Of a DNA stretch of 35,809 bases, positions 7,347 to 25,672 are shown in pieces. Source of the stretch: Acetobacteraceae bacterium. Lineage in GTDB: Bacteria > Pseudomonadota > Alphaproteobacteria > Acetobacterales > Acetobacteraceae. Each line of letters begins with the position of its first letter. The first letter of the stretch is position 1. The notes under the pieces were generated by a model. That model was not told the origin of the DNA and made no database searches. It saw nothing but the letters and a program-made list of their open reading frames with translations. The translations under genes and the position numbers were made by a program. The stretch is from positions 4,141-39,949 of the forward strand of contig PLTJ01000068.1 in the NCBI GenBank assembly GCA_003164455.1. The letters are read 5' to 3'.

Positions 7347-7349
7347 GGC

Positions 7350-7937: not shown

Positions 7938-7972
7938 AGACCTGGGGGAGGTTAACCGAAACGCCCCGCCAG

Positions 7973-8001
7973 ATATTGTGCGCCGCAGTGTACCGGGTCA
8001 A
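7973..8001 (-). promoter_or_regulatory. Candidate sigma-70 promoter for the HNH-YjbR operon
   Basis: On the minus strand, TTGACC (7996-8001) is separated by 17 bases from CAATAT (7973-7978), about 35 bases before the ATG at 7937. The -35 matches 5 of 6 consensus bases; the -10 is weak. A GGTTAACC palindrome lies between it and the gene. Confidence 0.4.
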
Positions 8002-8058
8002 TTTATCGCATCGCCTTGACGTCACCGCAAGCCGGACGGGGCGGGTTTCACTGCTCGG

Positions 8059-8709
8059 TCACGCGGCGCAGGCGCGTTGCAGAAACAGTGCGCCTGCGGC
8101 CAGGCCGGCTTCGTCGATGCCGTGGCCGAGACGTGGGCAGAACAGGCTGTCGACGGCGAAACCGGCGGCGCGCAGCGCGCATTCCGCTGCGCGCGAGCGG
8201 GACGCCGGCACGACGTCGTCGGCCTCGCCGTGCACCAGCAGGATCGGCGGACGCGACTGCGTCTGTGCCAGCAGCTCCGGCGCGAGCAGGGCACCGGAGT
8301 AGGCGAGGATGGCGCGTGGCGTCACGGCCCGGCGCGGCCCGGCATGCAACACGATCATCGCGCCCTGACTGAATCCAACCAGCGCGCAAGCGTCACCGGG
8401 CAGGCCGAGTCGCGCCAGTTCCGCATCGAGGAAATCGTCGAGCAGCAGCGAGGCGGCGTCCGCTCCGGCCTGCATCTGCGCCGGCGTGCGGTTCCAGAGA
8501 GGGAACCATTGGCGGCCCATCGGCGCGGAGTCATACGGCTCGGGCGCATCGGGGGCGACGAAGGCGGCCTGCGGCAGGGCCGCCGCCCACGACGGGGCGA
8601 GGTCGATCAGGTCGTGCCCGTCGGCGCCGACGCCGTGGCAGAGCACGACCAGTTGCTCCGCCCGTCCCTGTTTAGGTCCCCAGCGTGGGCCGTCCAGCAT
8701 CGCCTGCAC
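8059..8709 (-). CDS. Alpha/beta-hydrolase, phospholipase/carboxylesterase family
   Basis: The 216-residue length fits the small acyl-protein-thioesterase/carboxylesterase family. The oxyanion-side strand is LVVLCHGVGADGHDLIDLAPSW. The nucleophile elbow GFSQGAM places Ser at about 114. The acid is in HGEADDVVP (Asp about 164) and the catalytic His in LGHGID (about 196). A complete Ser-Asp-His triad is therefore visible and no signal peptide is present, so the enzyme should act in the cytoplasm on a short-chain ester or thioester; the true substrate is unknown. A second Met three codons in is an alternative start. It is divergent from gluQ, with only 38 bases between start codons, so the two promoters must share or overlap that gap. 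Confidence 0.88.
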   Translation of the reverse strand: MQAMLDGPRWGPKQGRAEQLVVLCHGVGADGHDLIDLAPSWAAALPQAAFVAPDAPEPYDSAPMGRQWFPLWNRTPAQMQAGADAASLLLDDFLDAELARLGLPGDACALVGFSQGAMIVLHAGPRRAVTPRAILAYSGALLAPELLAQTQSRPPILLVHGEADDVVPASRSRAAECALRAAGFAVDSLFCPRLGHGIDEAGLAAGALFLQRACAA

Positions 8710-8747
8710 TCCCGGTTGGCGGCTGCGGCCTGTATATCGGACCGCAC

Positions 8748-9599
8748 ATGGAGATCGTTACCCGCTTCGCCCCCAGCCCGACCGGCTATTTGCACCTCGG
8801 CCACGCCTTCTCGGCGCTGACCGCTTGGCGGCGGGCGCGGCAGGCCGGGGGGCGCTTCCTGCTACGGCTGGAGGACATTGACCCCGGGCGCTGCCGGCCG
8901 GAATTTTCTACCGCGATCCTGGACGACCTGGCTTGGCTGGGGCTCGATTGGGATGGCGAGGTGCGCGTGCAGTCCGCGCATCTACCCGACTACCGGACCG
9001 TACTGGACGGGCTGGCGGCGCGGGGCTTGGTGTATCCCTGTTTCTGCACACGGGCAAAAATCGCTCGCGAGGTGGCCGAGTCGGCCGCCGCCCCGCATGG
9101 GCCGGATGGTGCGCCGCTTTATCCCGGCACCTGCCGCCGTCTGCCCGAGGCGGTGCGGGCGGCACGACTGGCCGCTGGCGAGGAGCATGCATTGCGGCTG
9201 GACATGGTACGGGCCCTCGCGGTTGTGCCGGGACCGCTGGACTATGAGGAAGAAGGGAAGGGATCGGTGGCCTGCAACCCAGCGCGCTTCGGCGACGTTG
9301 TGCTGGCGCGCAAGGACGCGCCGGCCAGTTACCATCTCTGTGTGACGCATGACGATGCCTTGCAGGGGGTGACGCTGGTGACCCGCGGCGAAGACCTGAA
9401 GCCGGCGACTGACGTACATCGGCTGCTGCAGGCGCTGATGGGCTGGCCGGTGCCGCACTACGCGCACCACGCCCTGCTGACCGACGCCACCGGGCAGCGC
9501 TTGGCCAAGCGCGACCGCGCGGAGACACTGCGGCAGATGCGCGCCGCCGGTATGACGCCGGCCGAACTGAGGGCGCGCCTCGGCGCGGCGGGAGCGTAA
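8748..9599 (+). CDS. gluQ: Glutamyl-Q tRNA(Asp) synthetase
   Basis: The 283-residue product is a class I synthetase core lacking the anticodon-binding domain, which distinguishes GluQ from GluRS. It charges the queuosine base of tRNA(Asp) with glutamate. ATG 8748 gives the canonical start MEIVTRFAPSPTGYLHLGHA with the HIGH-type motif HLGH; the ORF-track start at 8685 overlaps the divergent hydrolase gene. Other marks are LRLEDIDPGRCRPEF, a zinc site made from CFC near residue 100 and a downstream Y-x3-C (YPGTC), RFGDVVLARKDAPASYHL, TRGEDL, and a KMSKS-like loop RLAKRD. All active-site blocks are present. On my reading it is the last chromosomal gene before the integrated element, whose left repeat begins 155 bases after this stop. 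Confidence 0.96.
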   Translation: MEIVTRFAPSPTGYLHLGHAFSALTAWRRARQAGGRFLLRLEDIDPGRCRPEFSTAILDDLAWLGLDWDGEVRVQSAHLPDYRTVLDGLAARGLVYPCFCTRAKIAREVAESAAAPHGPDGAPLYPGTCRRLPEAVRAARLAAGEEHALRLDMVRALAVVPGPLDYEEEGKGSVACNPARFGDVVLARKDAPASYHLCVTHDDALQGVTLVTRGEDLKPATDVHRLLQALMGWPVPHYAHHALLTDATGQRLAKRDRAETLRQMRAAGMTPAELRARLGAAGA

Positions 9600-9754
9600 C
9601 GGAAGGTCGGCAGCACGGTTGTTGCGTCGGATACAGCGGCTGCGTCGGATGCCCTCCGATAGGCGAGCGGAAGGCGTGCCGCCCGGCTGCGAACCGGCGA
9701 CGGGGGGCGGGGTGTTCTTGCGTGACGATGCCGACCCGTTGGTCGCGTGATGGA

Positions 9755-9768
9755 TAAGGGGTCCTTAA
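9755..9768. repeat. Left 14-bp direct repeat (candidate attL)
   Basis: TAAGGGGTCCTTAA is identical to 25659-25672. The base before differs (A here, T at the right), so this copy reads ATAA-N7-TTAA. It lies 155 bases after gluQ, and an unusually AT-rich stretch begins about 20 bases to its right. Confidence 0.65.
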
Positions 9769-9797
9769 AGGCGAATGAGGCGTAATACCATGTAATC

Positions 9798-9846
9798 GTT
9801 ATAATAATCTCCTAGACGCTCGGTTCTAGGTAACGTTTGTATAACG
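9798..9846. repeat. Nested inverted repeats in an AT-rich stretch near the left end
   Basis: CGTTAT (9798-9803) pairs with ATAACG (9841-9846), and inside it CCTAGA (9811-9816) pairs with TCTAGG (9825-9830). The region is far more AT-rich than its neighbours. GTATAACG also occurs near the integrase at 25511-25518. It may be an integrase or regulator binding region or a promoter; this is unproven. Confidence 0.4.
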
Positions 9847-9864
9847 AGACGCCCGATGTGCTAG

Positions 9865-10317
9865 CCTTCACGCCGGGCACGGACAAGCCAAATTCCCAAA
9901 GGAAAATCCGTCCTGCGGCGCCGGCACCTGAGCGAGAGCCAGGCGGATATCACACCCCGTCCCGCAGCGTCTGCCGGCCTATCCCCGCCGTCCGCGCCGC
10001 TATCCCGCGGGTCACCCAGCCCTGCCGCCGCGCGCTACACCTTCGCTTGGTTGACGCATGCCTACGTCGACTTGGACCTTTATCCAAGCGGGACCGTTTC
10101 GAAAGTGCAGCACTGGGCTCGTCCCTTCAAGATCTACTTGAACGGGCGCTGGGTCAGCAGCGTTGGATGCCAGGGCACCCGTATAACCGGTGTCAGGGAA
10201 GAGAGGATTATCGCGGGCAACGATAGGCATGCCTATGCGGGTATTTGCGAGGCAACCATCGGGTTCGCCTTCCTGGATACGTTGCTACCGGATGCCACTC
10301 GGCTGGTGGCAAGATGA
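9865..10317 (+). pseudogene. Open frame without a usable start; possible gene remnant
   Basis: After an in-frame TAG at 9862-9864, frame 1 stays open to the stop at 10315-10317 (150 codons). The last 93 residues look protein-like: RYTFAWLTHAYVDLDLYPSG, KIYLNGRWVSSVGCQG, and AGICEATIGFAFLDTLLP suggest a beta-rich domain. The preceding part is rich in Pro, Ser and Ala like a linker. There is no ATG or GTG in this frame; the only standard start is TTG 10051, which would give 88 residues without a clear ribosome site. I do not recognise the domain. It may be the 3' end of a gene cut off when cargo was acquired, or noncoding. The overlapping frame 9837-10226 looks less protein-like. The 851-base stretch 9600-10450 otherwise holds only the repeats listed. 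Confidence 0.35.
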
Positions 10318-10357
10318 TCGGGCTCGATCCCCGCCCCTGCGTTGGCGGCGATTCGGC

Positions 10358-10386
10358 TTGACATTGTGACGGGCACGGACCATTCG
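10358..10386 (+). promoter_or_regulatory. Possible promoter of the helicase-nuclease gene
   Basis: A perfect TTGACA hexamer (10358-10363) lies 88 bases before the ATG at 10451. The hexamer 17 bases later, CATTCG, is a poor -10. The call therefore rests on the -35 and position only. Confidence 0.25.
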
Positions 10387-10450
10387 TGCCGCCCGTCGCT
10401 GTGCGCGGCCTCAGCTTCGAACGGCCGCTGCTTCGGAGCTGCTAGCCGCT

Positions 10451-13400
10451 ATGGAAGACAGCAGGGACTCCCCGACCGAAGCGGAGCCAAGTGATCGGGA
10501 GGAAGTGAAGACAGCTTCCCAGGGAGCGCCGCAGGCTCCAGGCTCCGTGTCCTTGTCGGCCACCGTTCTGCCCGCGATCAACGTGGCGCTCTGGGCCAAC
10601 CATGTTCCAGTGCTCTCCGAACTCAGCCTCGGAAACGACACCGCCGACCGCCTGGATGACGTGGAGATCGAGGTCGAGAGCATCCCGCCAGCGGTGCGGA
10701 GCCGAAGCTGGCGCCTCGCTCAGGTGAGCAGCGGCCAGATGTGCGTCCTCAAGGACCTCGACATCAAGCTTGATGGCCCCTGGCTTGCCAGCCTCACCGA
10801 GAGCGTCCGCGGCACCGTGATCTTCAGGGCCAAGTGCGGCGAGAGGCTGCTGGTCGAGGTCGAGCGGGAGGTCCGGTTCCTTGCCCATAACGAGTGGGGC
10901 GGATCCGCGGCCATTCCCGATGTGCTCGCGGCGTTCGTTGAGCCCAACGACCCTGCCGTGCCAGTGGTGCTACGCAAGGCATCCGACCTGCTGCGTGCCC
11001 AGAGCAAGCCGGACAGCCTGGAAGGCTATCAAGCGACATCGAAGCAGCGGCTGTGGGAACAGGCGGCAGCGATCTGGAGCGCGGTTTGCTCGCTCGACAT
11101 CCGTTACGTGAACCCGCCGCCATCCTTCGAGCGGGAAGGCCAGCGGATCAGGCCGCCGAGTCAGGTGCTGCATGAGCGGCTCGCGACCTGCCTCGATCTC
11201 GCCGTGCTGTTCGGCGCCTGCCTGGAGCACGTCGGCCTCCGCCCGCTGATCGTGCTCACCAAGGGCCACGCCTTCGCTGGCGTCTGGCTTTCGCGCCACG
11301 ACTTCGGGGCGTCCGTCGCGAGCGATGCGCCGAGCCTCCGCACCCGCCTCGCGCTGCACGATCTGCTGGTTTTCGAGACCACGCTGTGCTGTCAGTCCCC
11401 AGCCCCGGGGTTCAAGAGGGCCTGCGCCGCGGGCACCGAACGCGTTGCGGCGGAGTTCGACGGGGAGTTTGAGGGCATTGTCGATGTGATGCGTGCCCGC
11501 CAGCGGCGGATCTTGCCGATGGGGTCGGCCAGCGGCACCTACGCCCGCATCTCAATTCCCGGCGTCGCGGGCGATCTCCCGGAAGCGGGGCCGCCACAAA
11601 TCGAGGAGGCTCCTCCGCTTCGCGATGACGAGGACGAGCCCGATGCCGAAGCGGCCCCTGCCAGCGCCGCGGACCGCCTCGCCCGATGGCAGAAGCGCCT
11701 GCTTGACCTGTCGGGGCGCAACCGCCTCCTGAACCTGCGGGTGGGGGGCAAGCAGGCCCTCGCGATAGACTGCCACGATCCGGCCAAGCTCGAGGACGCG
11801 CTGGCGGGGATGCGCGGCGTCCCGAAGGCAGCCCCGTTCCGCTTCCAGCCATGGCCGGACCTAATGTCCGGCGCTGACCCGCGAAGCGCCGTGCTCCACC
11901 GCGATCGGATGAACGAAGCTGCGGACCGTGCCTTTGCCCGCGATGCCCAGGAAAAGCGCGAGCTCCTTGTCGCGCTGGACGAGGAGAAGCTCCAGGGGGC
12001 GCTGACCGAGCTCTACCGGACGGCGCGGGCCGCGGCGCAGGAGGGCGGAGCGAACACCCTCTTCTTGACGATCGGCGCTCTGCTCTGGAAGGCGAAGGGC
12101 AAGGACAAGCCCTACCGGGCGCCGCTTGTCCTGGTGCCGGCCATCCTGGAGCGCCCGAGCGTCCGCTCAGGCTTCCGCCTCCGCGCCCACGATGACGAGA
12201 CGCGCGTGAACTCCACGCTGCTGGAGATGCTCAAGGAGGAGTACGGGATCCGCCTGCCCGACATGGAAGCCGCCCTGCCCGAGGATGGTTCCGGCCTCGA
12301 CGTGAACGCGATTCTCGACGCGTTCCGGAGGCAGGTGCGGGAAATCCCCGGCTGGGAGGTGACCGAGGACATCGCGATCACCAACCTGTCCTTCACCAAG
12401 TACCTGATGTGGAAGGACCTGACCGATCGCGCGGACGAGCTGCGGGCGAACGAAGTTGCCCGCCGCCTGATGGACGGGGCGCAGGAAACGGATGCAGTGG
12501 AGCCGTCGTCCAGCCATGGTGGCGCCCATGAGGACTACGTCGGGGCCACCCTTGACGAAGATCCCATGCTTGCCACCCTTGCCTGCCCGATGGAGGCCGA
12601 TTCCTCGCAGCTGCGCGCCGTGGCGGCGGCCGCGCACGGCGAGAGCTATGTTCTGATCGGGCCGCCCGGCACGGGCAAGAGCCAGACGATCGCCAATATC
12701 ATCTCGAACACGCTCGCGCAGGGGCGCAGCGTGCTGTTCGTCGCCGAGAAGCGCGCCGCGCTGGAGGTTGTGCAGCGTCGTCTCCGCATGGCCGGGTTGG
12801 GCGATTTCTGCCTCGACCTTTTCTCGGTCAAGGCATCGAAGATGGCCGTGCTGGAGCAGCTCAACCACGCCCAGGAGGCCAGGGAGACCATCGATCCTGG
12901 CGAGTGGGCCACCGCCCATCAGGAGGGCGCGGATCTCCGCGCCGAACTCAATGGGTATGTCCGCGAACTCCATCGTCGAGGGCGGAACGGCTGGACGGCA
13001 TACCGGGCGATCGGCTGCATCCTCCGGGCCGAGACAGGCGGCGTGCCGGATGTCTCGCTTTCCTGGCCGGATGCCGACACCCACGATGCGGCCGCATACC
13101 AGAAACTGGTCGAAGCGGTCGAGGACGCGGCCGCCGTCTTCTCGCGCCTGAGCGACATCGCGGCATGCACGGCCCTCGTCGGGATCGATCGGCCCGAATG
13201 GTCGCCAAGCTGGCAAGCCGCGATCGTGGAGGCAGCGCGAGCCTCGGCCATGGCCCTCGGACACCTGCAGAAGGCGGCGGCGCCGGCGGTCCGCGCGCTG
13301 TCTCTCCCGGCGGAACTGCCGCTCACCCTCCAGGCGTTCCGCGCCATTGACGCCCTTGCGGGCATGCTCCTCGATCCGGCATCCCAGGAAGCGGCCTGGG

Positions 13401-16400
13401 CGCTGGCAAGCGGGTCCCAGGACACCCTGGACGCACTGCGGTCTGCCGCAGAGGTCGCGCGGGCTCACGCCGATCTGGCGAGCCGCCTGTCGACCCAATG
13501 GACCCCGGATGTGAAGGGCCTCCCCTTAACGTCCCTCCTGGCCGACTGGCGGGAGGCGGCCACACGTTGGTGGCCCGCGCGCCGATCCCGGCAAAAGGCG
13601 ATCCTGGAGCGCCTCCGCGCCGCCGCTGCGGATGTGCCCGAGGATCCGGTCCCCGACCTCCAGAAGCTTATCGCCATGGCAGCCAAGGAAGCAGAGCTAG
13701 GCGCCCTGGCGGAGCATCTCGCACCGACGCTCGGGCGGCGCTGGCGGGGCCTCCAGACAGATTTTTCACGCCTCGACGAAGCAGGCCAGAAGGCTACTGG
13801 CATCAGGGCCGCCGCGGCCGCCTGCGCGCCCGATCCCACAACGCTGCTCGCGCTCCGGGGGCACATCCAGCGGCTGCTCGGCGATGGCGCGGACCTCCTG
13901 GCCAATGCGGGTGCGGTGGGTGCCCCGCTCCAGCATTTCCGGGCCGCCTACGCCGAGGCGATGGCCAGCCTCGCCGCGCTGGCCCCGCTGTGCTGCGGGG
14001 AGCCCCAGTCCGCGGTGGAGGAATCGCGGGAGGACTGGGCGACCGCGCTCGCGGAGCACCTCGGTGGCTGGGTTAGGAACGCAAGGCTCCTGCGGGATTG
14101 GTGCGGATGGCGCGGGGTCACGCAGCGGGCCGAGTCCATCGGTCTCGCCCCCCTTCTCAGGGCCATGGAGAGCGGCAGCGTCGCCGTTGCCGACACGCCG
14201 CGGGTGTTCGAGGCGAACTACGCGCGCTGGTGGATCAGCGTGGCTGTGGACGACCTGCCACGCCTGCGCGCCTTCGTGGCGGCCGCGCACGAGCAGCGGA
14301 TCGAGCGCTTCCGCGCCCTGGACAAAAAGCTTCTCGACCTGTCGGCGCGGTTCGCCCGAGCGGGGGTGATCGCAGGCGTCCCTGGCGCCGCCGAGAGATC
14401 AGCAAGCTCCGAGTTCGCGGTGCTGACGCACGAGTTGGCCAAGCGCCAGCGGCACCTGCCAGTGCGGCAGCTTCTCAACCGGATGCCGCATGCTCTCCGG
14501 CGACTCACCCCATGCCTGATGATGAGTCCGCTTTCCGTCGCCCAGTATCTCCCGGCCAACGCGGCGCCGTTCGACCTCGTGATCTTCGACGAGGCGTCCC
14601 AGATTCCCACGTGGGACGCAATCGGCGCGATTGGGCGTGGCCGCCAGGTCATCGTGGCCGGAGACCCGAAGCAGCTCCCGCCGACGCGCTTCTTCGAGCG
14701 CGTCATTCCGGAGTCCGGGGAAAACAGCGAAGGCGAAACGGTGGAGGTCGACACCGAGGATCTCGAATCCATCCTGGACGAGTGCCGCGGGGCGGGCATC
14801 CGCAACATCGAGCTCACGTGGCACTACCGGAGCCGCTACGAGGCGCTGATTGCATTCTCGAACTACCAGTACTACGGCGGGCGGCTGGTCACCTTCCCGT
14901 CCCCCGTGGTCAAGGACACCGCGGTGTCCTATCGGCATGTCGCCGACGGTGTCTACGCGCGGGCGGGCGCCCGGACCAACCAGGCCGAGGCCCAGGCGGT
15001 CGTGGCAGAGGTCGTGGGCCATCTCCGCGCCATCGCGGATGGCGGCCCCGAAAAGTCGATCGGCATTGTCTCATTCAACGCCGAGCAGCAAGCGCTGATC
15101 GAGAACCTGCTCGACCAGGCCCGCCGCGACGACCCATCCATCGAGCGGTTCTTCTCCGAAGACCTCGCCGAACCCGTCCTGGTGAAGAACCTTGAAGGCG
15201 TGCAGGGCGAGGAGCGAGACGTGATCATCTTCTCGCTCACCTATGGACCGGACGTCACTGGGCGCGTGTCCATGAACTTCGGCCCCATGAACCAGTCCGG
15301 CGGCGAGCGCCGTCTGAACGTCGCGGTCACCCGGGCGCGAGAAGCGATGATCGTGTTCGGCAGCCTGCGGGCGGACCACATCGACCTGAACCGGACCTCC
15401 ACCTCCGCGGTGGGGGTTGCCCACCTCAAGCAATTCCTCGCCTATGCAGAGCACGGAGCAAGAGCGTTCGCCACGGCCGCCACCGGACCGCTCGGCGATT
15501 TCGAAAGCCCATTCGAGGCGGCCGTGGCCGAACGGCTCCGGAACCTGGGCTGGGTGGTGCACCCACAAATCGGAGTGTCTGGGTTCCGCGTTGATCTCGG
15601 CGTGGTGAATGTCGACGCGCCAGGGGCCTACCTCGCCGGCGTCGAGTGCGACGGCGCGACCTACCACCGCGCCGCCTCGGCCCGGGACCGGGACAGGCTG
15701 CGTCAGGCCGTGCTGGAGAACCTCGGCTGGCGGATCCTGCGCGTGTGGTCAACCGACTGGTGGACGAACGCCCGCAGGGAAGCCGATCGACTGCACGCGG
15801 TGCTCAATGAGATGCTCCACGCGGCCAGAGAGGCCCGGTCCGCCGTGCAAGAGGCGAGCACTGCCGCTGCTGGACATGAAGTCGCGCCGCAAAACGCCGC
15901 GGTGGCGGAATCCGCTGAAGAATTCGCGGCGTCCGGGGACACCGCGCCTGCCAGCGCGGCGCCGCCCGACCTCACCGCTGGGCTCGATCCCGAGCGCTTC
16001 TACGATATTGATTACGTTCCGCGCCTGACCACCCTGGTCGAGGTTATCCTGCGCGCCGAGGCTCCGATGCGCGACGAGCAGCTTGCCCAGCGTGTCGCCC
16101 GCGCACACGGTTTCCAACGCACGGGTCGACGCATCAGGGACGCCGTGTTTGCCCTTGTCCCCCGCGGCTGCGCAATCACCAAGGAGTCCGAAGCTGCATT
16201 CATCTGGCCGCCGAGCATTGCGCCCTCGTCTTGGTCGGTCTTCCGCGATCCGGGGCGGGGAGAGCAGCGTGACCCCGCGGACGTGCCCATCGAGGAACTG
16301 GCTGCGCTCGCGCGCCGTGTCCTCCATGGCGCCGCGGATGAGGAGGCGGCTCTTATCCTTATGCGCGACGCCTGTGGCTTGGCAAAGCTGCGCGACGCCA

Positions 16401-16453
16401 CTAGGGAGCGCTGCGAGGCGGCAATTCGGAAGGTAAGCGGCACTCTGATCTAG
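10451..16453 (+). CDS. DUF4011 / SF1 helicase / Vsr-like nuclease / DUF3320 giant protein (Hhe-type anti-phage protein)
   Basis: The product is 2000 residues. Residues about 200-290 hold a transglutaminase-like core (TCLDLAVLFGACLEHVG with Cys247, and KGHAFAGVW with His273). DUF4011 begins near 408 (RLARWQKRLLDLSGRNRLLNL). An SF1 DNA2/NAM7-type helicase follows: Walker A GPPGTGKS at 737-744, Walker B DEAS at 1380-1383, AGDPKQLPPT, and the C-terminal motifs GVQGEERDVIIFSLTYG and RRLNVAVTRAREAM. A PD-(D/E)XK domain of the MTES_1575/Vsr type starts at about 1683 ([35 protein letters not shown] with Glu1732). A DUF3320 segment lies near 1859-1905. The single-gene system DUF4011-helicase-Vsr was reported as the anti-phage gene Hhe (Gao and colleagues 2020, from memory). 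All motor and nuclease motifs look intact. It is the main cargo of the island. Confidence 0.88.
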   Translation: MEDSRDSPTEAEPSDREEVKTASQGAPQAPGSVSLSATVLPAINVALWANHVPVLSELSLGNDTADRLDDVEIEVESIPPAVRSRSWRLAQVSSGQMCVLKDLDIKLDGPWLASLTESVRGTVIFRAKCGERLLVEVEREVRFLAHNEWGGSAAIPDVLAAFVEPNDPAVPVVLRKASDLLRAQSKPDSLEGYQATSKQRLWEQAAAIWSAVCSLDIRYVNPPPSFEREGQRIRPPSQVLHERLATCLDLAVLFGACLEHVGLRPLIVLTKGHAFAGVWLSRHDFGASVASDAPSLRTRLALHDLLVFETTLCCQSPAPGFKRACAAGTERVAAEFDGEFEGIVDVMRARQRRILPMGSASGTYARISIPGVAGDLPEAGPPQIEEAPPLRDDEDEPDAEAAPASAADRLARWQKRLLDLSGRNRLLNLRVGGKQALAIDCHDPAKLEDALAGMRGVPKAAPFRFQPWPDLMSGADPRSAVLHRDRMNEAADRAFARDAQEKRELLVALDEEKLQGALTELYRTARAAAQEGGANTLFLTIGALLWKAKGKDKPYRAPLVLVPAILERPSVRSGFRLRAHDDETRVNSTLLEMLKEEYGIRLPDMEAALPEDGSGLDVNAILDAFRRQVREIPGWEVTEDIAITNLSFTKYLMWKDLTDRADELRANEVARRLMDGAQETDAVEPSSSHGGAHEDYVGATLDEDPMLATLACPMEADSSQLRAVAAAAHGESYVLIGPPGTGKSQTIANIISNTLAQGRSVLFVAEKRAALEVVQRRLRMAGLGDFCLDLFSVKASKMAVLEQLNHAQEARETIDPGEWATAHQEGADLRAELNGYVRELHRRGRNGWTAYRAIGCILRAETGGVPDVSLSWPDADTHDAAAYQKLVEAVEDAAAVFSRLSDIAACTALVGIDRPEWSPSWQAAIVEAARASAMALGHLQKAAAPAVRALSLPAELPLTLQAFRAIDALAGMLLDPASQEAAWALASGSQDTLDALRSAAEVARAHADLASRLSTQWTPDVKGLPLTSLLADWREAATRWWPARRSRQKAILERLRAAAADVPEDPVPDLQKLIAMAAKEAELGALAEHLAPTLGRRWRGLQTDFSRLDEAGQKATGIRAAAAACAPDPTTLLALRGHIQRLLGDGADLLANAGAVGAPLQHFRAAYAEAMASLAALAPLCCGEPQSAVEESREDWATALAEHLGGWVRNARLLRDWCGWRGVTQRAESIGLAPLLRAMESGSVAVADTPRVFEANYARWWISVAVDDLPRLRAFVAAAHEQRIERFRALDKKLLDLSARFARAGVIAGVPGAAERSASSEFAVLTHELAKRQRHLPVRQLLNRMPHALRRLTPCLMMSPLSVAQYLPANAAPFDLVIFDEASQIPTWDAIGAIGRGRQVIVAGDPKQLPPTRFFERVIPESGENSEGETVEVDTEDLESILDECRGAGIRNIELTWHYRSRYEALIAFSNYQYYGGRLVTFPSPVVKDTAVSYRHVADGVYARAGARTNQAEAQAVVAEVVGHLRAIADGGPEKSIGIVSFNAEQQALIENLLDQARRDDPSIERFFSEDLAEPVLVKNLEGVQGEERDVIIFSLTYGPDVTGRVSMNFGPMNQSGGERRLNVAVTRAREAMIVFGSLRADHIDLNRTSTSAVGVAHLKQFLAYAEHGARAFATAATGPLGDFESPFEAAVAERLRNLGWVVHPQIGVSGFRVDLGVVNVDAPGAYLAGVECDGATYHRAASARDRDRLRQAVLENLGWRILRVWSTDWWTNARREADRLHAVLNEMLHAAREARSAVQEASTAAAGHEVAPQNAAVAESAEEFAASGDTAPASAAPPDLTAGLDPERFYDIDYVPRLTTLVEVILRAEAPMRDEQLAQRVARAHGFQRTGRRIRDAVFALVPRGCAITKESEAAFIWPPSIAPSSWSVFRDPGRGEQRDPADVPIEELAALARRVLHGAADEEAALILMRDACGLAKLRDATRERCEAAIRKVSGTLI

Positions 16454-16547
16454 CGGGACCAGGCACCAGAACCGCAGAGTGAGGCGCTTGAGGTACGCCA
16501 ACCACGCCGCCGTCCAGCGCTACGCGCAGAAGGCGGCGCTGCTGGGC

Positions 16548-16659
16548 AATGCGCGGAAACGTGGGGGGCTGTGTCATGCTGATCGTCCTATGCCTGTTCT
16601 TCCCGCCGGCCATCCCGTTCGTCATCCTCTACTATCTGTTCCGCGGCAGAGGGCAGCGG
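16548..16659 (+). repeat. Duplicated leader module, copy 1
   Basis: AATGCGCGGAAACGTGGGG through GGGCAGCGG is about 112 bp long and closely matches 17253-17368. It spans the ribosome site, the start codon and the first 28 codons (MLIVLC...FFPPAIPFVILYYLF) of two consecutive genes. Copy 1 has GGGGGG in place of the GGGGAGGAG ribosome site of copy 2. Confidence 0.85.
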
Positions 16660-17226
16660 CACCTGTTTTTCGTTGCACTGCTTGTTTTGACCGGATGCGC
16701 CACCGCTGCGCAGCGCCAGCCACAGCAAGCCGGTGCAGCGATAGGAGAGACGCCAGCGCAGTTTAGAGCTTGCCTGACGGCGGTCATCACCAAGCCTGAG
16801 TACGCTTCGCTGCTTCCGCACACCCCTGATCTCACAACGGGTCTATCCACGGCGCAGTTGACCGATGAGACCTTTATTTCTCCGGAAGGCGCTAGACTCC
16901 TTATCGCCAGACATCGTGAAGTGAGTTCCTGCCAAACATACTGTTTGAATGCACTCTTGCCCGTGAGACCGGATATGGTCCCGATCTTGGCCGACGAGTA
17001 CACCAAAGAGACCGCCCTTTCGGTGCAGTTGGTCGAGCGGAAGATCACCTGGGGGGAAGGCGCGCGGCAGGGTCAGGCGGTAATGAGTGACTTAGCCAAG
17101 CTCATCGTCGCTGCTGACCGGCAGTGGTTTGTGCAGCGCCAGGCCGCGGGTGCCGCATTGATGCGGTGGTCGGCACAAGAGCAGTTAGCCCAGCAGCGGA
17201 TGATCGACGCGATGAGCCACCCGTGA
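16576..17226 (+). CDS. Membrane/lipoprotein-like protein of unknown function
   Basis: I choose ATG 16576 (216 residues) because the aligned start of the paralogous next gene has a clear ribosome site there; the ORF-track start at 16549 lies inside the repeated leader. The N-terminus MLIVLCLFFPPAIPFVILYYLF is one hydrophobic segment. After an RGRGQRH turn comes a second, HLFFVALLVLTGCATAA, which ends in a good lipobox (LTGC, Cys41). That looks like an original lipoprotein signal placed behind the duplicated leader. The mature part has four further Cys (two in the pair SSCQTYC), is otherwise helical, and matches no family I know. The gene starts 122 bases after the helicase-nuclease gene on the same strand and may be co-transcribed. 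It could be a DNA-entry or envelope partner of the defence gene, or independent cargo. Confidence 0.7.
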   Translation: MLIVLCLFFPPAIPFVILYYLFRGRGQRHLFFVALLVLTGCATAAQRQPQQAGAAIGETPAQFRACLTAVITKPEYASLLPHTPDLTTGLSTAQLTDETFISPEGARLLIARHREVSSCQTYCLNALLPVRPDMVPILADEYTKETALSVQLVERKITWGEGARQGQAVMSDLAKLIVAADRQWFVQRQAAGAALMRWSAQEQLAQQRMIDAMSHP

Positions 17227-17252
17227 TGACCAATTGCGCGGTATTCGGCTCG

Positions 17253-17368
17253 AATGCGCGGAAACGTGGGGAGGAGACTGTGCCATGCTGATCGTTCTTT
17301 GCATCGTCTTCCCGCCGGCCATCCCCTTCGTCATCCTCTACTACCTGTTCCACGGCGGCGGGCAGCGG
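17253..17368 (+). repeat. Duplicated leader module, copy 2
   Basis: This is the second copy of the roughly 112-bp module at 16548-16659. It includes a strong GGGGAGGAG ribosome site 8 bases before ATG 17285 and encodes MLIVLC, then FPPAIPFVILYYLF. The differences are mostly synonymous third-base changes, suggesting the peptide is under selection. Confidence 0.85.
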
Positions 17369-18979: not shown

Positions 18980-19079
18980 AGGCGAGCTGTGTCCATGGCG
19001 CGGGGTAGCTCAGCCCCATGGCGCGGGCGCGTTATTGCGCTGAAATTCCGCGGATCGGCATTGTGTGCGCCGCTACAGC

Positions 19080-19343
19080 TTACACCACCTCGCACAACCG
19101 CGCCGTGCTGGCCTTCAACCGCGCGATCAGCGCCCGCAGCGCGCGAGCCTCGGCACTGCGGCCACCGTGAACCGTCCGGGCCGCGGCCAGCCGGGCCAAC
19201 CCCTCGGCGGTGCGCGGGCCGGTGCTGCAACCCCCATGAAGCCGGCATCGGCCGTTGGGCATAGGCCATCGGCGGCACGGCGTTCCTGCCCGCGTGCGGG
19301 CACCACAGCGGCCTTCCACGGGGTTTTGCGCCCGATCCGGCAT
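19080..19343 (-). CDS. HGGxSTGPRT-motif small protein
   Basis: This 87-residue protein is recognised by the near-invariant HGG-CSTGPRTAEGLARLAAART-HGG core, typical of short conserved genes in alphaproteobacterial prophages and integrated elements. Upstream of it, CGARTRAGTPCRRW and GRCRLHGG give a Cys-Cys-Cys-His set that could bind a metal ion. The C-terminal third is helical and basic. It starts 3 bases after the stop of the preceding minus-strand gene, so it is translationally coupled and the last gene of the element's leftward operon. The molecular role is unknown. A 100-base gap separates it from the convergent envelope gene at 18979. Confidence 0.8.
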   Translation of the reverse strand: MPDRAQNPVEGRCGARTRAGTPCRRWPMPNGRCRLHGGCSTGPRTAEGLARLAAARTVHGGRSAEARALRALIARLKASTARLCEVV

Positions 19344-19346
19344 GGC

Positions 19347-20262: not shown

Positions 20263-21921
20263 TCACTTTGGCACAGCCTCCAGCTTCCACTTGGTGGCGC
20301 TGTGCGCGGTGCCGTCCACCGCGAACCGGTAGGGCGACCCGTCGGCTCCGCAGGACACGATGCGTTGTGCGTTCTTTTTCAGCCATTCCCCCAACCGGGT
20401 TGGGCTGATGTATTCTGCCCCCTGGCCGGCCGCGACGGCGCGGAGCGCATCCCGCAGTTCGGGGTGCGCCGGGTCGCCTTCATCGCCAAACGCGGCTCCC
20501 CTCGGCAACGTTTCCTGCGCCTTCTGGCGCACGTCGCGGACCAGCACCCCTTTGTCTGCGCCGATGGCTTCCAGCCACGCCGCCGCGACCGCGCGCAGGG
20601 CGGCCAGCTTCGGGTCATGGCCACGGGTGCGCTCCATGACATCGCAGGGATCGGCCTCGCCCAACCATGTTAGCGCCGAGCGCACCATCTTGGACCAGAC
20701 CTCGAACGACCCGAGCGGCGTCTCGGTCGGGCGCTCGCCGGACATCGCATAGGCGCGGATGACGGTCAGGGCCTTGACGATCAACATAGGGCGTGCCCGC
20801 TTAGCCAACGCCACCGGATCGAACTTGAAGTCGCGCAACTCAGGGCGCTCGACATGGGGGTCAATCCGGCCGACCAGGGCGCGCCGGGTCAGGTCGCCAA
20901 CCAGGACCAAGTTGTTACCGGTGGCCGCAAGGAAGAACGTGTTCGGGACCATCACATTCTTGCTGCCCCCCAGGGGTCGGATGTTGACCAGAGGCTGCGT
21001 CAGCAGTTGACACAGCAGCTCGCCGCCGAGTGGGTGGTCGGTGTTGTCGATTGTGATCACCGCATGGCCGGCCAGCACCAACGCGACCACCCGCTTTTCC
21101 AACTCGGCGTCGCCATATTTATCGTGGCCGGTGGAGGTGACCGCTGCTTCGTGCCCTGTCGCGATGATCGACGCGACGTCAACAATCTTACTTTTGCCGC
21201 TGCCGGCGGTCGGTCCGTCAAAGGTGTGCATCGGCGCAGTCGGGATCGAGCAGCGTACAGCCGCCGTCAGGACGGCCGACAGTGCTACCGACTCGTCGGC
21301 CTTGGTCTCGAATTCGTATCCACGGAACAGTCGTTTGATTGAGGCGAGCGCTTTCCGCGCCACCTCCTTATCCGGGTGCTCAGGGACCTGGGCGAACCGC
21401 ACGCCGAGGGGGTTGAACAACAGGCCCGTCGCGGTGTCGTAACCCGGCGTTTCGATGATGGACATGTCCGGCCGGAAGGTCGGCGCGGTGGTCACGGCAA
21501 GCAGCGGTCGGAGGCGCCAGTCGCCGTCGCGCGCGAGGTAGGCCTCGGCAACAAGCCGCGGGCAGTCGCACGGCACGGAGTCACCCGCCCTGCCATCAAA
21601 TTTCTCGAAGCGAGCCGCACGCATAAACTGTTCTATCAGAGCGGCGGGTTCCACCGCCGCAAGGCGCGGCGCATCGGCGGTGCCCCCGCCGGATATCTTG
21701 ATCTTGTCGATAATCACATGGACAACTCGGCCACCGCTTTGGAAGATGTCGCCCGCTGCCTGAACGAGCGCAGCTTCTGCCTCATCGACTACGCGGGGCA
21801 GCCCCCCCGGTGTCACGTTGACCACGGGCAGGTCCGGATCTGTCGCGGGTGCCGGACGCTTCTTCTTGCCGCGTTGCGCCCGCCCCTCGGCCAGGTTGAT
21901 GATATTGGATTCCTCGGTCAT
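20263..21921 (-). CDS. AAA/SF3-like ATPase (replicative helicase candidate of the element)
   Basis: I start at ATG 21921 (552 residues), which overlaps the primase stop as ATGA and has GGAGGTG 6-8 bases upstream; the track's GTG 21930 sits on that ribosome site. Walker A is GPTAGSGKS at about 236-244, a Walker B-like strand is HAVITIDNTD at about 286-295, and a sensor-like TFFLAATGNN follows. An arginine-rich LTRRALVGRIDPHVERPE fits an arginine finger region. The N-terminal 200 residues are unassigned but include RPLLAVTTAPTFRPD and TGLLFNPLG, which recur in element-encoded ATPases paired with Prim-Pol. The C-terminus ends in a winged-helix-like segment (SPTRLGEWLKKNAQRIVS). The likely job is DNA unwinding together with the coupled primase; helicase activity is inferred. 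Confidence 0.82.
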   Translation of the reverse strand: MTEESNIINLAEGRAQRGKKKRPAPATDPDLPVVNVTPGGLPRVVDEAEAALVQAAGDIFQSGGRVVHVIIDKIKISGGGTADAPRLAAVEPAALIEQFMRAARFEKFDGRAGDSVPCDCPRLVAEAYLARDGDWRLRPLLAVTTAPTFRPDMSIIETPGYDTATGLLFNPLGVRFAQVPEHPDKEVARKALASIKRLFRGYEFETKADESVALSAVLTAAVRCSIPTAPMHTFDGPTAGSGKSKIVDVASIIATGHEAAVTSTGHDKYGDAELEKRVVALVLAGHAVITIDNTDHPLGGELLCQLLTQPLVNIRPLGGSKNVMVPNTFFLAATGNNLVLVGDLTRRALVGRIDPHVERPELRDFKFDPVALAKRARPMLIVKALTVIRAYAMSGERPTETPLGSFEVWSKMVRSALTWLGEADPCDVMERTRGHDPKLAALRAVAAAWLEAIGADKGVLVRDVRQKAQETLPRGAAFGDEGDPAHPELRDALRAVAAGQGAEYISPTRLGEWLKKNAQRIVSCGADGSPYRFAVDGTAHSATKWKLEAVPK

Positions 21922-22733
21922 CGCCGACACCTCCGGGCTTCGCGTTTACAGATCGAGTCAACGACGCGCGTCAGCTCGTCGTTATCCAGCGAGGGCCGGC
22001 AGCGGGCCGCATTCCACATCCGCATCACGTCAAGAACCAACAGCGGGTCCACCCAGTGCCGAAGCAGATACCCGGTAAGCTGCGCGACTGCTGCGTTGCG
22101 GGTGCCTTGTGTCGCCCCGGCCGCGAACAGGTCCCGGTGCCGCTCGGGCGAGGCAACGGTAGCGCCCGCCGGCCCGCTACCGCCGGCTTGCTGAGCGGCC
22201 AGCAGCAGCCACGGTGGCGCATGCCCGACGGCAACCACCTCCGGCCCATGGCCTGGGTGCCAGCGGTAGCAACCACCGTTAGGGTGGACAGACGGCGGCG
22301 CGACCACGTAGCCGCCATCGGAACGCACGTCGATGCCCGGCGCGAACTTGCCGACACTGTTCCGGATGCCGGGCGCGCCAGCGAAGTAGAGGTGCCAGCC
22401 GCCCCCGCCGGTGGTGGCCACGACCGTCTCGCCGACGCCGCCGTGCTCGCGTCGCAAGTCGGCGAAGGACACGTCGCCGCCGTGCCGCGGATCGCCGTCT
22501 ATGACGAACAGGTTGCTTACTGAGCCTGTGGCGATGCCGACGTTGGCGGCCGGGTATTCGGTCCACCAGCGCCGGATCGCCGCCTCGTCCGTGGTGGCGT
22601 CCAGGCACCCGCGCCCACCGCGTTCCTTGGCGATGAACGGCAGCTTGCTGCGCACACCCAGGGGGAAGACCGCCCACCCAAGCGCGGCATAGCCGAGCGC
22701 CGCGTCGAGGTGCGTCGTCTTGCCGCCGCTCAT
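21918..22733 (-). CDS. Bifunctional DNA primase/polymerase (Prim-Pol) with PriCT-like tail
   Basis: The 271-residue protein begins with the archaeo-eukaryotic-type Prim-Pol fold: AALGYAALGWAVFPLG, WWTEYPAANVGIATG, the catalytic acidic pair FVIDGDP (Asp79, Asp81), VVATTGGGGWHLYF (about 105-117 with His114), and GIDVRSDGGYVVAPPSVHPNG (about 133-153). The C-terminal 70 residues (GTRNAAVAQLTGYLLRH, then NAARCRPSLDNDELTRVVDSI) match the PriCT primase tail. The enzyme should make primers and possibly extend them for replication of the excised element. It is translationally coupled to the ATPase gene by ATGA. The core is compact, so it may rely on host polymerase. All three primase motifs are intact. 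Confidence 0.9.
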   Translation of the reverse strand: MSGGKTTHLDAALGYAALGWAVFPLGVRSKLPFIAKERGGRGCLDATTDEAAIRRWWTEYPAANVGIATGSVSNLFVIDGDPRHGGDVSFADLRREHGGVGETVVATTGGGGWHLYFAGAPGIRNSVGKFAPGIDVRSDGGYVVAPPSVHPNGGCYRWHPGHGPEVVAVGHAPPWLLLAAQQAGGSGPAGATVASPERHRDLFAAGATQGTRNAAVAQLTGYLLRHWVDPLLVLDVMRMWNAARCRPSLDNDELTRVVDSICKREARRCRR

Positions 22734-22915: not shown

Positions 22916-22950
22916 CTTCGCCCTAACCGTCCACGCTGGGGCGAAGTTTT
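22916..22950. terminator. Hairpin just beyond the AlpA-like gene
   Basis: CTTCGCCC (22916-22923) pairs with GGGCGAAG (22939-22946), starting right after the minus-strand stop of the AlpA-like gene. The run TTTT follows on the plus strand only. It may attenuate transcription between the regulator and the primase. No gene is seen in the 215-base gap 22734-22948. Confidence 0.45.
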
Positions 22951-23347
22951 ATGCGGCGACGACGACGACCGGCTCCACGACCTTCCGTGGCCTGCCGCTC
23001 CGCCCGCTCGCCTTGCAGGCCGTCGTACCGGGAAAGGTGCGTCCAGCCGGTGCGTCGTTCGTTCCCTGCCGCGGCAGCGACTCTCTGAATGCCTCGATTT
23101 CGCTCCGCAACCAGAAGACCCGCGAGCCGACGTATCGGCCGGGCGCTAGCTTGCCCTCCCGCACCATTTTCCAGAGCGTGGGGTAGGAGGAGTGCAGCAG
23201 GAGGCACGTCTCCGCCTTCGTAACGAGCGGGTCTTCACCGGCCCATGCCGCGGTCGGCGCGAGCACGCCGACACCGGCCGGGTGATCCAACATGCCGCCC
23301 GCGGCGGTAGGCGCAGTCGGCGCGGTCGACTCCATCACCTTGGACAT
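22949..23347 (-). CDS. AlpA-like helix-turn-helix regulator/excisionase
   Basis: The 132-residue protein has a winged-helix segment at about 41-91: LVTKAETCLLLHSSYPTLWKMVREGKLAPGRYVGSRVFWLRSEIEAF. This is the AlpA/MerR-type excisionase fold that controls integrase expression or excision in phage-like elements. The N-terminal 40 residues are Ala/Pro-rich and disordered. The C-terminus has GRSGRPRKVV, an AT-hook-like patch. An 8-bp inverted repeat lies 7 bases upstream of the ATG and overlaps where the ribosome and promoter should bind, which suggests autorepression. It stands between the integrase pair and the primase pair. Whether it activates integrase, represses replication or acts as Xis cannot be read from sequence. 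Confidence 0.82.
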   Translation of the reverse strand: MSKVMESTAPTAPTAAGGMLDHPAGVGVLAPTAAWAGEDPLVTKAETCLLLHSSYPTLWKMVREGKLAPGRYVGSRVFWLRSEIEAFRESLPRQGTNDAPAGRTFPGTTACKASGRSGRPRKVVEPVVVVAA

Positions 23348-23593: not shown

Positions 23594-24243
23594 GCGACGA
23601 GCCTTGTAATGCGGCACAGCGCGCCAAGCATCTGCGGGTGGATGGTTTCCACGATCCGCTCGACGAACTGCATTGCGGCGCTTGAGGCGAGGGGCCGACC
23701 GTGCTTCGGGTCGGAAGGAGTCCATCCCCAACTAAACTTCTTGCCCGTCGTCTGTTCCCAGATGTGGCGCAGCTCCTTTACGAATTCCAACAGGCGGCGG
23801 CTGATCGGCGTTTCCTCTTCCTTCCGCGGCCTCCCCTTGGGCCGCTGGCCGCGGCGTTGCACGTCGAGCGCCGCGCGGCGGACAGCCTCCGTCTCGCGGG
23901 TCAGCGCGTCCAGGCGATCCACGGCAGTAATGATCGGATCACCCGAGGGATCATCATCGCCCCTCGCCAGCGAAAGGGCTAACGGCACGAAGTTGCGTTC
24001 ATCCCTCAGAAGCTCCAAGGCCGCACCGAGTCTCTTTGCCAAATCATCCAGGTCTTCGCCCGCCCAGTCGTCGGCCGTCTTGTGCGCGTCTGTGGTGTAG
24101 GTCACCGCTGCGATGTACGCGTCCACTGCCTTGCGCAGAGAATTGCGCAGGGCATCGCGATCGTGGATGTTGAACTTGGACGCCAGCGCGGCCACCAGCG
24201 CCGTCAGGTCGTTGTCTGTGATATCTCGCGGCGCCGCCGTCAC
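23539..24243 (-). CDS. Element protein of unknown function coupled to the integrase
   Basis: The 234-residue protein begins at GTG 24243, overlapping the integrase stop by GTGA, so the two are translated together. I do not recognise a family. The N-terminal 90 residues are helical (DLTALVAALASKFNIHDRDALRNSLRKAVDAY). A predicted coiled segment around VDRLDALTRETEAVRRAALDVQRRGQ leads to PKGRPRKEEE, an AT-hook-like basic patch. The C-terminal part is aromatic and basic (LRHIWEQTTGKKFSWGWTPSDPKHGRP). DNA binding is plausible but inferred. Coupling to the integrase suggests a role in recombination or its control. The 3' end of the gene overlaps one arm of a large inverted repeat. Confidence 0.65.
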   Translation of the reverse strand: MTAAPRDITDNDLTALVAALASKFNIHDRDALRNSLRKAVDAYIAAVTYTTDAHKTADDWAGEDLDDLAKRLGAALELLRDERNFVPLALSLARGDDDPSGDPIITAVDRLDALTRETEAVRRAALDVQRRGQRPKGRPRKEEETPISRRLLEFVKELRHIWEQTTGKKFSWGWTPSDPKHGRPLASSAAMQFVERIVETIHPQMLGALCRITRLVAYGAAPPVGSGAHHIHVK

Positions 24244-25499
24244 GCCCGCAACTCCACCACGTTTCCCCCGGCCACGCGTCCGATGAGGGTCATGATCCGC
24301 CGCGTCACCGCCTCCTGGATCTTCTGATTCTCATCTGCGTATTGGTGCTGATCATACACATCGGCGATGCCGCCCTCCCGGTGATTCTGGATTCTGTTCA
24401 TCGCGTCGCGGCCAAAGCCGAGGCTGGTGATCATGGTGCCATGCGTCCGGCGCAAGTCGTGCGGCGTCACCTTGTCCGGCGCGAGGATGCCCAGGGCAGC
24501 GCACGTGTCCCGCATCGCGCCGTCCAGGCCCGCCACCGCCCGCGCGCCGCGCTCATCAGCCGGGAAGGCGAAGCCGGTCTTCGCTTCACCGACCTCGGCC
24601 AGTAGGTCCAGGACCGGTGCGGTCAGCCAAACCCTGTGTCCGGCGCCGTTCTTGGTGCCCGGCCAGCCAAGTGCGAGGTCCGGGTCGCCGGGCAGTTCCC
24701 ACCACCCGCCGCTGATATGTTCGCGGCGCATACAGGAGACCTCGCCCGGCCGTTGCCCGGTCAACAAGATTGTTTTCAGGGCCGCGCTGCGAACAAGCCC
24801 GGCCCTGTCGAACTCCGCCCAGAACCGCGGCAGTTCGGATTCGCTCAACACCCGCTCCCGTGATTTGGTCGCGTTGCGCGTCACGCCGTGACAGGGGTTC
24901 ACCGCGATATCGCCGAGCTCCTCCCTGATCGCCCAGGCGAAGATGGCGCTTGCCGAAGCAAGCACTTGGTTTGCCATCACAGGCGCACCGCCCTCGGTCA
25001 GCTTCCGGACGACCGCGCGGACATCGCCGCGTGTGACGTCGCGAGCGCGCAGCTTGCCCCACCGGGGAAGCAAATGCTTCGTCACCAACGCGTCGGCCTG
25101 CCGCCAGGATTTGTTGCCTCCCGGGCGCTTGGCGTGTTCCAGGTAGCGGGCGGCCACGTCCTGGAAGGTCTCGGCCCTGGTGCCGCGCAGCTTCTCGGCC
25201 TGCGGGTCCGTCCCGCGCGCCACCTGCCCCAGGAGGTCACGCGCCCGGTCGCGCGCGTCGGCGAGGCCAATCGCATCCGCCCGACCAATCGTGAACACTC
25301 GCAGCCGGCCGCCGGCCCGGTAGGTGAACCTCCAACTCCTGCTCCCGCTGGGCTGCACGGCCAGAGCGAGGCCGGGCGCTATCGCGTCCCAGAAGAGCAC
25401 GCGGTCGGGTCCCGGGGCGACGGACCGAATAAACCGGTCGCTGAGCCGAAGCTTGTTAGGCTGCCTCGGCGGTGACCCGTCTCGTCGGGGTCGTGGCAT
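24240..25499 (-). CDS. int: Tyrosine recombinase / integrase (DUF4102-type N-terminus)
   Basis: The 419-residue length is typical of P4/phage-like integrases with an N-terminal DUF4102 domain (LSDRFIRSVAPGPDRVLFWDAIAPGLALAVQPSGSRSWRFTYR). A SAM-like core-binding domain spans about 110-205. The catalytic domain has the full set of residues: Arg250 in LLTGQRPGEV, Lys283 in GTKNGAGHRVWL, His347 and Arg350 in TPHDLRRTHGT, His373 in QNHREGG, and the nucleophile Tyr387 in VYDQHQYADE. It should catalyse site-specific insertion and excision of the element. A GGAG ribosome site lies 7 bases before the ATG. The right-hand candidate att copy is 159 bases upstream of its start, in the usual position for an integrase next to its attachment site. 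It appears intact. Confidence 0.95.
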   Translation of the reverse strand: MPRPRRDGSPPRQPNKLRLSDRFIRSVAPGPDRVLFWDAIAPGLALAVQPSGSRSWRFTYRAGGRLRVFTIGRADAIGLADARDRARDLLGQVARGTDPQAEKLRGTRAETFQDVAARYLEHAKRPGGNKSWRQADALVTKHLLPRWGKLRARDVTRGDVRAVVRKLTEGGAPVMANQVLASASAIFAWAIREELGDIAVNPCHGVTRNATKSRERVLSESELPRFWAEFDRAGLVRSAALKTILLTGQRPGEVSCMRREHISGGWWELPGDPDLALGWPGTKNGAGHRVWLTAPVLDLLAEVGEAKTGFAFPADERGARAVAGLDGAMRDTCAALGILAPDKVTPHDLRRTHGTMITSLGFGRDAMNRIQNHREGGIADVYDQHQYADENQKIQEAVTRRIMTLIGRVAGGNVVELRA

Positions 25500-25657: not shown

Positions 25658-25672
25658 TTAAGGGGTCCTTAA
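25658..25672. promoter_or_regulatory. CtrA-type box TTAA-N7-TTAA upstream of motB; contains the right 14-bp repeat (candidate attR)
   Basis: TTAAGGGGTCCTTAA is a perfect TTAA-N7-TTAA, the full site recognised by the alphaproteobacterial response regulator CtrA, which controls flagellar genes in many members of the class. It lies 46-60 bases before the motB ATG. Bases 25659-25672 are also identical to 9755-9768, so the same bases are the candidate right attachment repeat. Confidence 0.55.

What the first reader, a model, noticed from the sequence alone, without database searches (positions are those of the whole stretch)
10451..16453. Hhe-type helicase-nuclease with an N-terminal transglutaminase-like module
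DUF4011, SF1 helicase and Vsr-like nuclease order matches the reported single-gene anti-phage system Hhe. Before DUF4011 lies a 400-residue region with a Cys...His arrangement of the transglutaminase/papain-like type (Cys247, His273) whose role is undescribed as far as I know. It could be a sensor, a protease-like effector, or a catalytically dead scaffold.
Basis: partly seen in the sequence, partly recalled or inferred. Interest (0 to 1): 0.7.

Follow-up and report, generated by a model that had tools for sequence, protein, structure and literature searches.

The report
ProA-type anti-phage helicase-nuclease with transglutaminase-like domain
A 2,000-residue protein on a mobile DNA island of an acetic-acid-type bacterium matches a recently named family of phage-defence proteins (ProA), which joins a DNA motor, a DNA-cutting domain and an apparently active protease-like domain; the protein is a new example of something already catalogued, and what the protease-like domain does remains open.

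Summary
In detail: window 10451-16453 (+) is one intact 2000-aa ORF with DUF4011, split SF1 helicase, MTES_1575 (Vsr-like) nuclease and DUF3320, preceded by a real transglutaminase (TGase)-like module with Cys247 and His273. The family assignment needs correcting. The protein scores 2111.6 bits against NCBIfam NF058533 'anti-phage protein ProA' (cut-off 1500) but only 827 against Hhe (cut-off 2000). The Hhe profile starts at DUF4011, whereas profile positions 1-320 of ProA are this N-terminal module. TGase + SF1 helicase + Vsr nuclease + wHTH giant proteins were described in 2013 (PMC3710099), so the architecture is not new. New here: Cys247, His273 and Glu309 are invariant in 77 sequences; AlphaFold gives a TGase-like fold (pLDDT 92.7-93.9); Glu309 is the likely third residue. 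Degenerate paralogues in one alphaproteobacterial genus have damaged TGase and nuclease sites together; shorter relatives lack the module. The gene is cargo on a ~15.9-kb integrase/Prim-Pol island between 14-bp direct repeats; a congener has the empty site. Verdict: new member of a known kind, most likely a DNA-restricting helicase-nuclease with a catalytic cysteine-protease-like second domain. Substrate, anti-phage activity and regulation are untested.

The parts
10451..16453 (+). ProA-type anti-phage protein, 2000 aa, intact ORF
   Evidence: NCBIfam NF058533 2111.6 bits over residues 44-1972, cut-off 1500; PADLOC PDC-S37 1230 bits over 406-1995
10577..10885 (+). N-terminal beta-sandwich domain (residues about 43-145)
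   Evidence: AlphaFold secondary structure of residues 36-400, pLDDT 92.7; mean pairwise identity 0.33
10892..11536 (+). Transglutaminase-like (papain-like) domain, residues 148-362; C247, H273, E309 as triad, Q231 also invariant
11189..11191 (+). codon of Cys247 (predicted nucleophile)
   Evidence: invariant in 77-sequence alignment
11267..11269 (+). codon of His273
   Evidence: invariant in 77-sequence alignment
11375..11377 (+). codon of Glu309 (predicted third catalytic residue, in FETT; Asp in one intact relative)
11696..12232 (+). DUF4011 domain, residues 416-594
   Evidence: Pfam PF13195 140.7 bits
12599..15364 (+). SF1 (UPF1/SEN1/IGHMBP2-like) helicase, motif I at 717-778 and motifs II-VI at 1369-1638, with a long variable insert
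   Evidence: Pfam AAA_11, AAA_12, AAA_30; PDB sequence hits SMUBP-2, SEN1, UPF1
15512..15802 (+). MTES_1575 Vsr-like PD-(D/E)xK nuclease, residues 1688-1784 (D1715, E1732, D1734)
   Evidence: Pfam PF18741 117.8 bits; conservation
15995..16141 (+). DUF3320 (winged-HTH per the 2013 paper), residues 1849-1897
   Evidence: Pfam PF11784 51 bits; PMC3710099
9755..9768 (+). left direct repeat TAAGGGGTCCTTAA (putative attL)
   Evidence: 2 exact copies, none expected in shuffles
25659..25672 (+). right direct repeat TAAGGGGTCCTTAA (putative attR); homology with island-free relatives resumes here
24240..25499 (-). tyrosine integrase of the carrier island
   Evidence: Pfam Phage_integrase, PHROG integrase 4.8e-51
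22949..23347 (-). excisionase-like HTH protein of the island
   Evidence: Pfam HTH_17, phrog_66 5.5e-8
21918..22733 (-). Prim-Pol/PriCT primase of the island
   Evidence: Pfam PF09250 9.3e-43
20263..21930 (-). replication-associated protein of the island (PHROG 29234, unknown; weaker primase match)

Best explanation
This is a single-gene anti-phage protein of the ProA type carried as cargo on an integrative element. The SF1 helicase engages and translocates on invading DNA, helped by DUF4011 and the C-terminal winged-helix DUF3320, and the Vsr-like PD-(D/E)xK domain cuts it (inferred from domain families). The N-terminal beta-sandwich plus transglutaminase-like domain is a catalytically competent Cys247-His273-Glu309 enzyme, most likely a peptidase, which acts as a second, protein-directed arm switched by the DNA-engaged motor: it cleaves a phage or host protein. 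Shown here: domain content, fold, invariant triad, family assignment, mobile carrier, co-degeneration of the TGase and nuclease sites in pseudo-copies. Inferred: DNA cutting, protease rather than cross-linking chemistry, coupling to the helicase, anti-phage effect of this copy.
For: ProA equivalog 2111.6 bits versus cut-off 1500, covering the N-terminal module. Triad C247/H273/E309 invariant in 77 sequences and in 28 of 30 rows from a proteobacterial survey plus three plasmid/genome loci, the two exceptions being one split row and one degenerate paralogue. E309 replaced by Asp, the usual TGase third residue, in one otherwise intact relative, L136. AF2 pLDDT 92.7 and 93.9. Fold hits: transglutaminases TG2/TG3/FXIII with the two-domain model; pseudomurein endoisopeptidases PeiP/PeiW, TglA, PNGase, LapG, CPR-C4 protease, arylamine N-acetyltransferases and Rad4 with the core alone. 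TGase core is as conserved as DUF4011 (mean pairwise identity 0.49 each, against 0.22 for the following linker). In degenerate paralogues TGase and nuclease residues are lost together. Relatives sit beside PADLOC families DruE/DruH, JetA/JetC, GajA, AriA, LmuB and, in 5 of 80 loci, an ORF I read as HsdM-like; no fixed partner gene, so a one-gene system. Patchy: 60 of 200 genomes of the family have any relative; N-terminal module in 32 of 399 genomes of the phylum.
Against: Protease activity is not shown; the fold also serves amidases, acyltransferases, true cross-linkers and dead DNA-binding domains (Rad4). Fold E-values are weak (1e-3 to 1e-2, TM about 0.35 on the core). Shorter relatives keep helicase and nuclease without any TGase module (L123, 56% identical to residues 406-1787), so the module is not needed for the core function. 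The window island holds no other recognised defence gene. No control set was run for the flank comparison.
Confidence: 0.5

Rival explanations
1. The TGase-like domain is an autoprocessing or regulatory element: it cleaves the poorly conserved linker (residues 363-405) or otherwise releases the helicase-nuclease, and has no external substrate.
For: The linker is low in identity (0.22) and low in pLDDT (45-64 around residues 356-375) but carries a conserved proline (P388, 95%) in an E-x-x-P-x-L/P stretch. Short forms without the module exist as free DUF4011-helicase-nuclease proteins.
Against: No cleavage motif identified; short forms could equally be lineage losses.
Confidence: 0.22
2. The TGase-like domain is a non-catalytic scaffold or DNA/protein-binding sensor, as in Rad4/XPC.
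For: Rad4/XPC are among the fold hits; natural versions without Cys and His keep the fold signature and the open frame.
Against: Cys, His and acid are kept in all intact copies sampled; in the degenerate copies nuclease residues are lost too, which suggests that those proteins as a whole are pseudoenzymes, not that the TGase site is neutral.
Confidence: 0.13
3. The protein is Hhe with an accessory domain, working exactly as Hhe.
For: Same DUF4011-helicase-Vsr order; 827 bits to the Hhe model.
Against: Below the Hhe cut-off of 2000; the N-terminal 400 residues do not match the Hhe profile at all, and ProA fits far better.
Confidence: 0.1
4. A housekeeping DNA repair or genome-maintenance helicase-nuclease rather than a defence gene.
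For: A DUF4011 gene is a core gene at the right flank of cDHS1 in all P. aeruginosa isolates (PMC10250203).
Against: Patchy in this family, on a mobile island here, on conjugative plasmids elsewhere, often broken by insertion or stops.
Confidence: 0.05

Closest known systems
ProA, NCBIfam NF058533 'anti-phage protein ProA'
   Same: Whole length, including the N-terminal TGase-like module; 2111.6 bits against a cut-off of 1500.
   Different: Nothing in architecture that I can see; the paper behind the family was not found in the library, so its mechanism could not be compared.
Hhe, NCBIfam NF042953 / PADLOC Hhe
   Same: DUF4011, SF1 helicase, Vsr-like nuclease in the same order.
   Different: Hhe model starts at DUF4011; no TGase-like module; score 827 below cut-off 2000.
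Giant HEPN-TGase-SF1 helicase-Vsr-wHTH proteins (MTES_1575 type; Anantharaman et al. 2013, PMC3710099)
   Same: TGase-like peptidase, SF1 helicase, Vsr-family MTES_1575 nuclease, wHTH overlapping DUF3320; no modification enzyme.
   Different: No HEPN domain detected by Pfam in this protein.
PADLOC candidate PDC-S37 (short DUF4011 form, about 1400-1550 aa)
   Same: Residues 406-1995 align at 1230 bits.
   Different: The PADLOC model has no TGase-like module.

Membership tests
ProA (NF058533) | Whole-protein score above curated cut-off (1500) | tested here: met
   2111.6 bits, residues 44-1972 to profile 1-1896 of 1903
ProA (NF058533) | N-terminal module matched by the profile | tested here: met
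   Residues 44-365 to profile 1-320, 2e-107
ProA (NF058533) | Anti-phage activity | not testable with these tools
   needs plaque assays
Hhe (NF042953) | Whole-protein score above curated cut-off (2000) | tested here: not met
   827.4 bits
Hhe (NF042953) | DUF4011 - SF1 helicase - Vsr-like nuclease order | tested here: met
   Pfam positions
Hhe (NF042953) | Profile covers the protein end to end | tested here: not met
   Residues 1-400 give no Hhe match; the Hhe profile starts at DUF4011
Transglutaminase-like superfamily | Cys at a helix N-terminus, His on a strand, acid after the next strand | tested here: met
   C247, H273, E309 in the AF2 secondary structure; invariant. Atomic distances not available
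Transglutaminase-like superfamily | Pfam Transglut_core gathering score | tested here: not met
   15.1 of 23 bits for this protein; best relative E=7e-5
Transglutaminase-like superfamily | Fold match to solved members | tested here: met
   Most top Foldseek hits are members; best E 1.2e-3 and 3.1e-3, so support is by consistency rather than by one strong hit
Transglutaminase-like superfamily | Peptidase, amidase or acyl-transfer activity | not testable with these tools
   needs biochemistry
HEPN-TGase-helicase-Vsr giants (PMC3710099) | HEPN domain fused in the same chain | tested here: not met
   No HEPN family among the Pfam matches

The most novel reading that the evidence does not exclude
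One chain combines a DNA-sensing helicase-nuclease with a DNA-activated cysteine protease effector: when the motor loads on phage DNA the C247-H273-E309 site is switched on and cleaves a protein substrate, giving defence by combined DNA and protein cleavage.
Probability: 0.3. Interest if true: 0.65.

Novelty: new member of a known kind. Interest (0 to 1): 0.32.

Why it matters
The protein itself is a routine addition to a named defence family. The useful part is that a protease-like domain under full active-site constraint is fused to a DNA motor and a nuclease in one chain, with natural controls: short relatives without the domain, and paralogues in which the TGase and nuclease sites are both degenerate. 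These make the old suggestion of a proteolytic line of defence (PMC3710099) directly testable with three point mutants.

Tried and rejected
Hhe membership: rejected by curated cut-off and profile extent. A conserved operon partner: none; window neighbours P0002/P0003 do not recur as a pair beside relatives (three partial P0003 matches only) and no neighbour family recurs beyond lineage synteny, apart from an ORF I read as HsdM-like in 5 of 80 loci. A separate TGase gene next to the short forms: none within the fetched flanks, and no remnant by tblastn. A solved relative of the N-terminal module by sequence: none at E<=1. Third catalytic residue alternatives: D292 is only 88% conserved; D249 and D345 are invariant but sit next to the Cys and far downstream, so E309 after strand 305-308 is preferred. 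Paper searches for ProA, DUF4011 and DUF3320 did not find the source of the ProA name. Viral fold library: no informative hit. A profile self-comparison added only a consensus.

Full report
OBSERVATION. The ORF at 10451-16453 (+) is intact, 2000 aa. Pfam finds DUF4011 (416-594), split SF1 helicase (717-778 and 1369-1638), MTES_1575 Vsr-like nuclease (1688-1784) and DUF3320 (1849-1897).

FAMILY. NCBIfam assigns the protein to NF058533, anti-phage protein ProA, at 2111.6 bits (cut-off 1500), aligned from residue 44 to 1972. Hhe (NF042953) scores 827.4, far below its cut-off of 2000. Split into pieces, residues 1-400 match only ProA (profile 1-320) while DUF4011 lies near the start of the Hhe profile. 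The N-terminal module is therefore exactly what separates ProA-type proteins from Hhe. PADLOC's best model is the candidate PDC-S37, which covers 406-1995 only. The architecture TGase-like peptidase + SF1 helicase + Vsr nuclease + wHTH was described, with a HEPN domain in addition, by Anantharaman et al. 2013 (PMC3710099), who proposed protein cleavage as a further line of defence. The paper behind the ProA name was not found in the open library, so I cannot say what is already known of its mechanism.

N-TERMINAL MODULE. In 78 aligned homologues C247, D249, H273, E309, Q231 and D345 are invariant (77-sequence fragment alignment). Only 2 of 23 Cys and 5 of 40 His of the whole protein are invariant. 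AlphaFold on residues 36-400 gives mean pLDDT 92.7: a beta-sandwich (about 43-145) followed by a helix-rich alpha/beta domain with C247 at the start of a helix, H273 at the start of a strand and E309 just after the next strand. The isolated core (148-362) gives 93.9. Foldseek against the PDB returns transglutaminases for the two-domain model and, for the core, a list dominated by the transglutaminase-like superfamily: pseudomurein endoisopeptidases PeiP/PeiW, TglA, PNGase, LapG, CPR-C4 protease, arylamine N-acetyltransferases and Rad4/XPC. Individual E-values are weak (about 1e-3 to 0.5), so the assignment rests on consistency of the hits, on sub-threshold Pfam TGase matches in most relatives and on the motif geometry. 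One intact relative (L136) has Asp for E309, matching the usual C-H-D triad (established knowledge of the superfamily) and supporting E309 as third residue.

NATURAL VARIANTS. (a) Short relatives of about 1400-1550 aa start at DUF4011 and have no TGase module in cis or in the fetched flanks; one in the same genus as the window is 56% identical over residues 406-1787. The helicase-nuclease core can thus exist without it. (b) One alphaproteobacterial genus carries full-length degenerate paralogues. In G257, G203 and G664, C247 is Ala or Val, H273 is Met and E309 is Asp; the nuclease E1732 is Ile and the Walker lysine is kept. In G630, C247 is Ser, K743 is Val, D1715 is Ser and E1732 is Asp, with H273 kept. 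P0004, the G257 copy, falls below the ProA cut-off at 1206.9 bits. The joint loss of TGase and nuclease residues is suggestive of coupled activities, but it represents few evolutionary events.

CONTEXT. Relatives lie near Druantia, Wadjet, Gabija, PARIS and Lamassu families (no control set) and, in 5 of 80 loci, an ORF that I read as HsdM-like, but no gene recurs as a partner. They are patchy: 60 of 200 genomes of the family have any relative, and the N-terminal module is in 32 of 399 genomes of the phylum. They are found on conjugative plasmids of Gluconobacter, Pseudomonas aeruginosa and Enterobacter. In the window the gene is cargo of an integrative island. Exact 14-bp repeats TAAGGGGTCCTTAA at 9755-9768 and 25659-25672 (none expected by chance) bracket about 15.9 kb with a tyrosine integrase, an excisionase-like HTH protein, a Prim-Pol primase and a replication-type protein. 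Congener G731 has gluQ and motB-motA directly adjacent, with a single, imperfect copy of the repeat, and homology resumes at 25659-25666. In G076 and G732 about 2.6 kb of other DNA lies between, and a near-identical copy of the repeat stands before motB.

MECHANISM. Most likely the helicase engages phage DNA and the Vsr-like domain cuts it, with the TGase-like domain as a catalytically competent, probably peptidase, second arm. DNA cleavage and defence follow from the families; protease chemistry, substrate and coupling are inference. Alternatives are autoprocessing, a non-catalytic scaffold, or Hhe-like function with a dispensable accessory domain.

VERDICT. It is a new member of a known kind, with an open and testable question about the TGase-like enzyme.

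Noticed in passing
window 9755-25672: A ~15.9-kb integrative island (tyrosine integrase, excisionase-like HTH, Prim-Pol primase, cargo ProA) bounded by exact 14-bp repeats and inserted between gluQ and motBA; G731 shows the empty site.
   Followed up: yes
L130/L132 (G257), L109/L133 (G203), L134 (G664), L135 (G630): Degenerate ProA paralogues with damaged TGase and nuclease sites, three of them in full-length open frames, in one genus; possibly a maintained pseudoenzyme.
   Followed up: partly
L122 (G169) 3493-12489; plasmid hits H20, H31, H32: ProA genes interrupted by about 3 kb of inserted DNA (L122) or annotated IS21 genes (plasmids); several other family copies carry stops or are split, so the gene decays often.
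   Followed up: partly
window 16549-17226 and 17234-18979: Two consecutive ORFs downstream share a near-identical hydrophobic segment (MLIVLC-FPPAIPFVILYYLF); the second has a peptidoglycan-binding domain. Island cargo of unknown role.
   Followed up: no
window 7350-7937 (-): Small HNH protein with IscB-like HNH similarity (NCBIfam 3.7e-10, below cut-off), lying outside the island; DNA homology with G076 and G732 runs through this stretch.
   Followed up: no
plasmid collection: 440 plasmid records hold a relative of P0001, 243 of them Klebsiella; 50 cover at least 80% of the query in one place. An Enterobacter plasmid copy is ProA by cut-off; the same Enterobacter gene has no near match in 5,426 E. 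coli genomes.
   Followed up: partly
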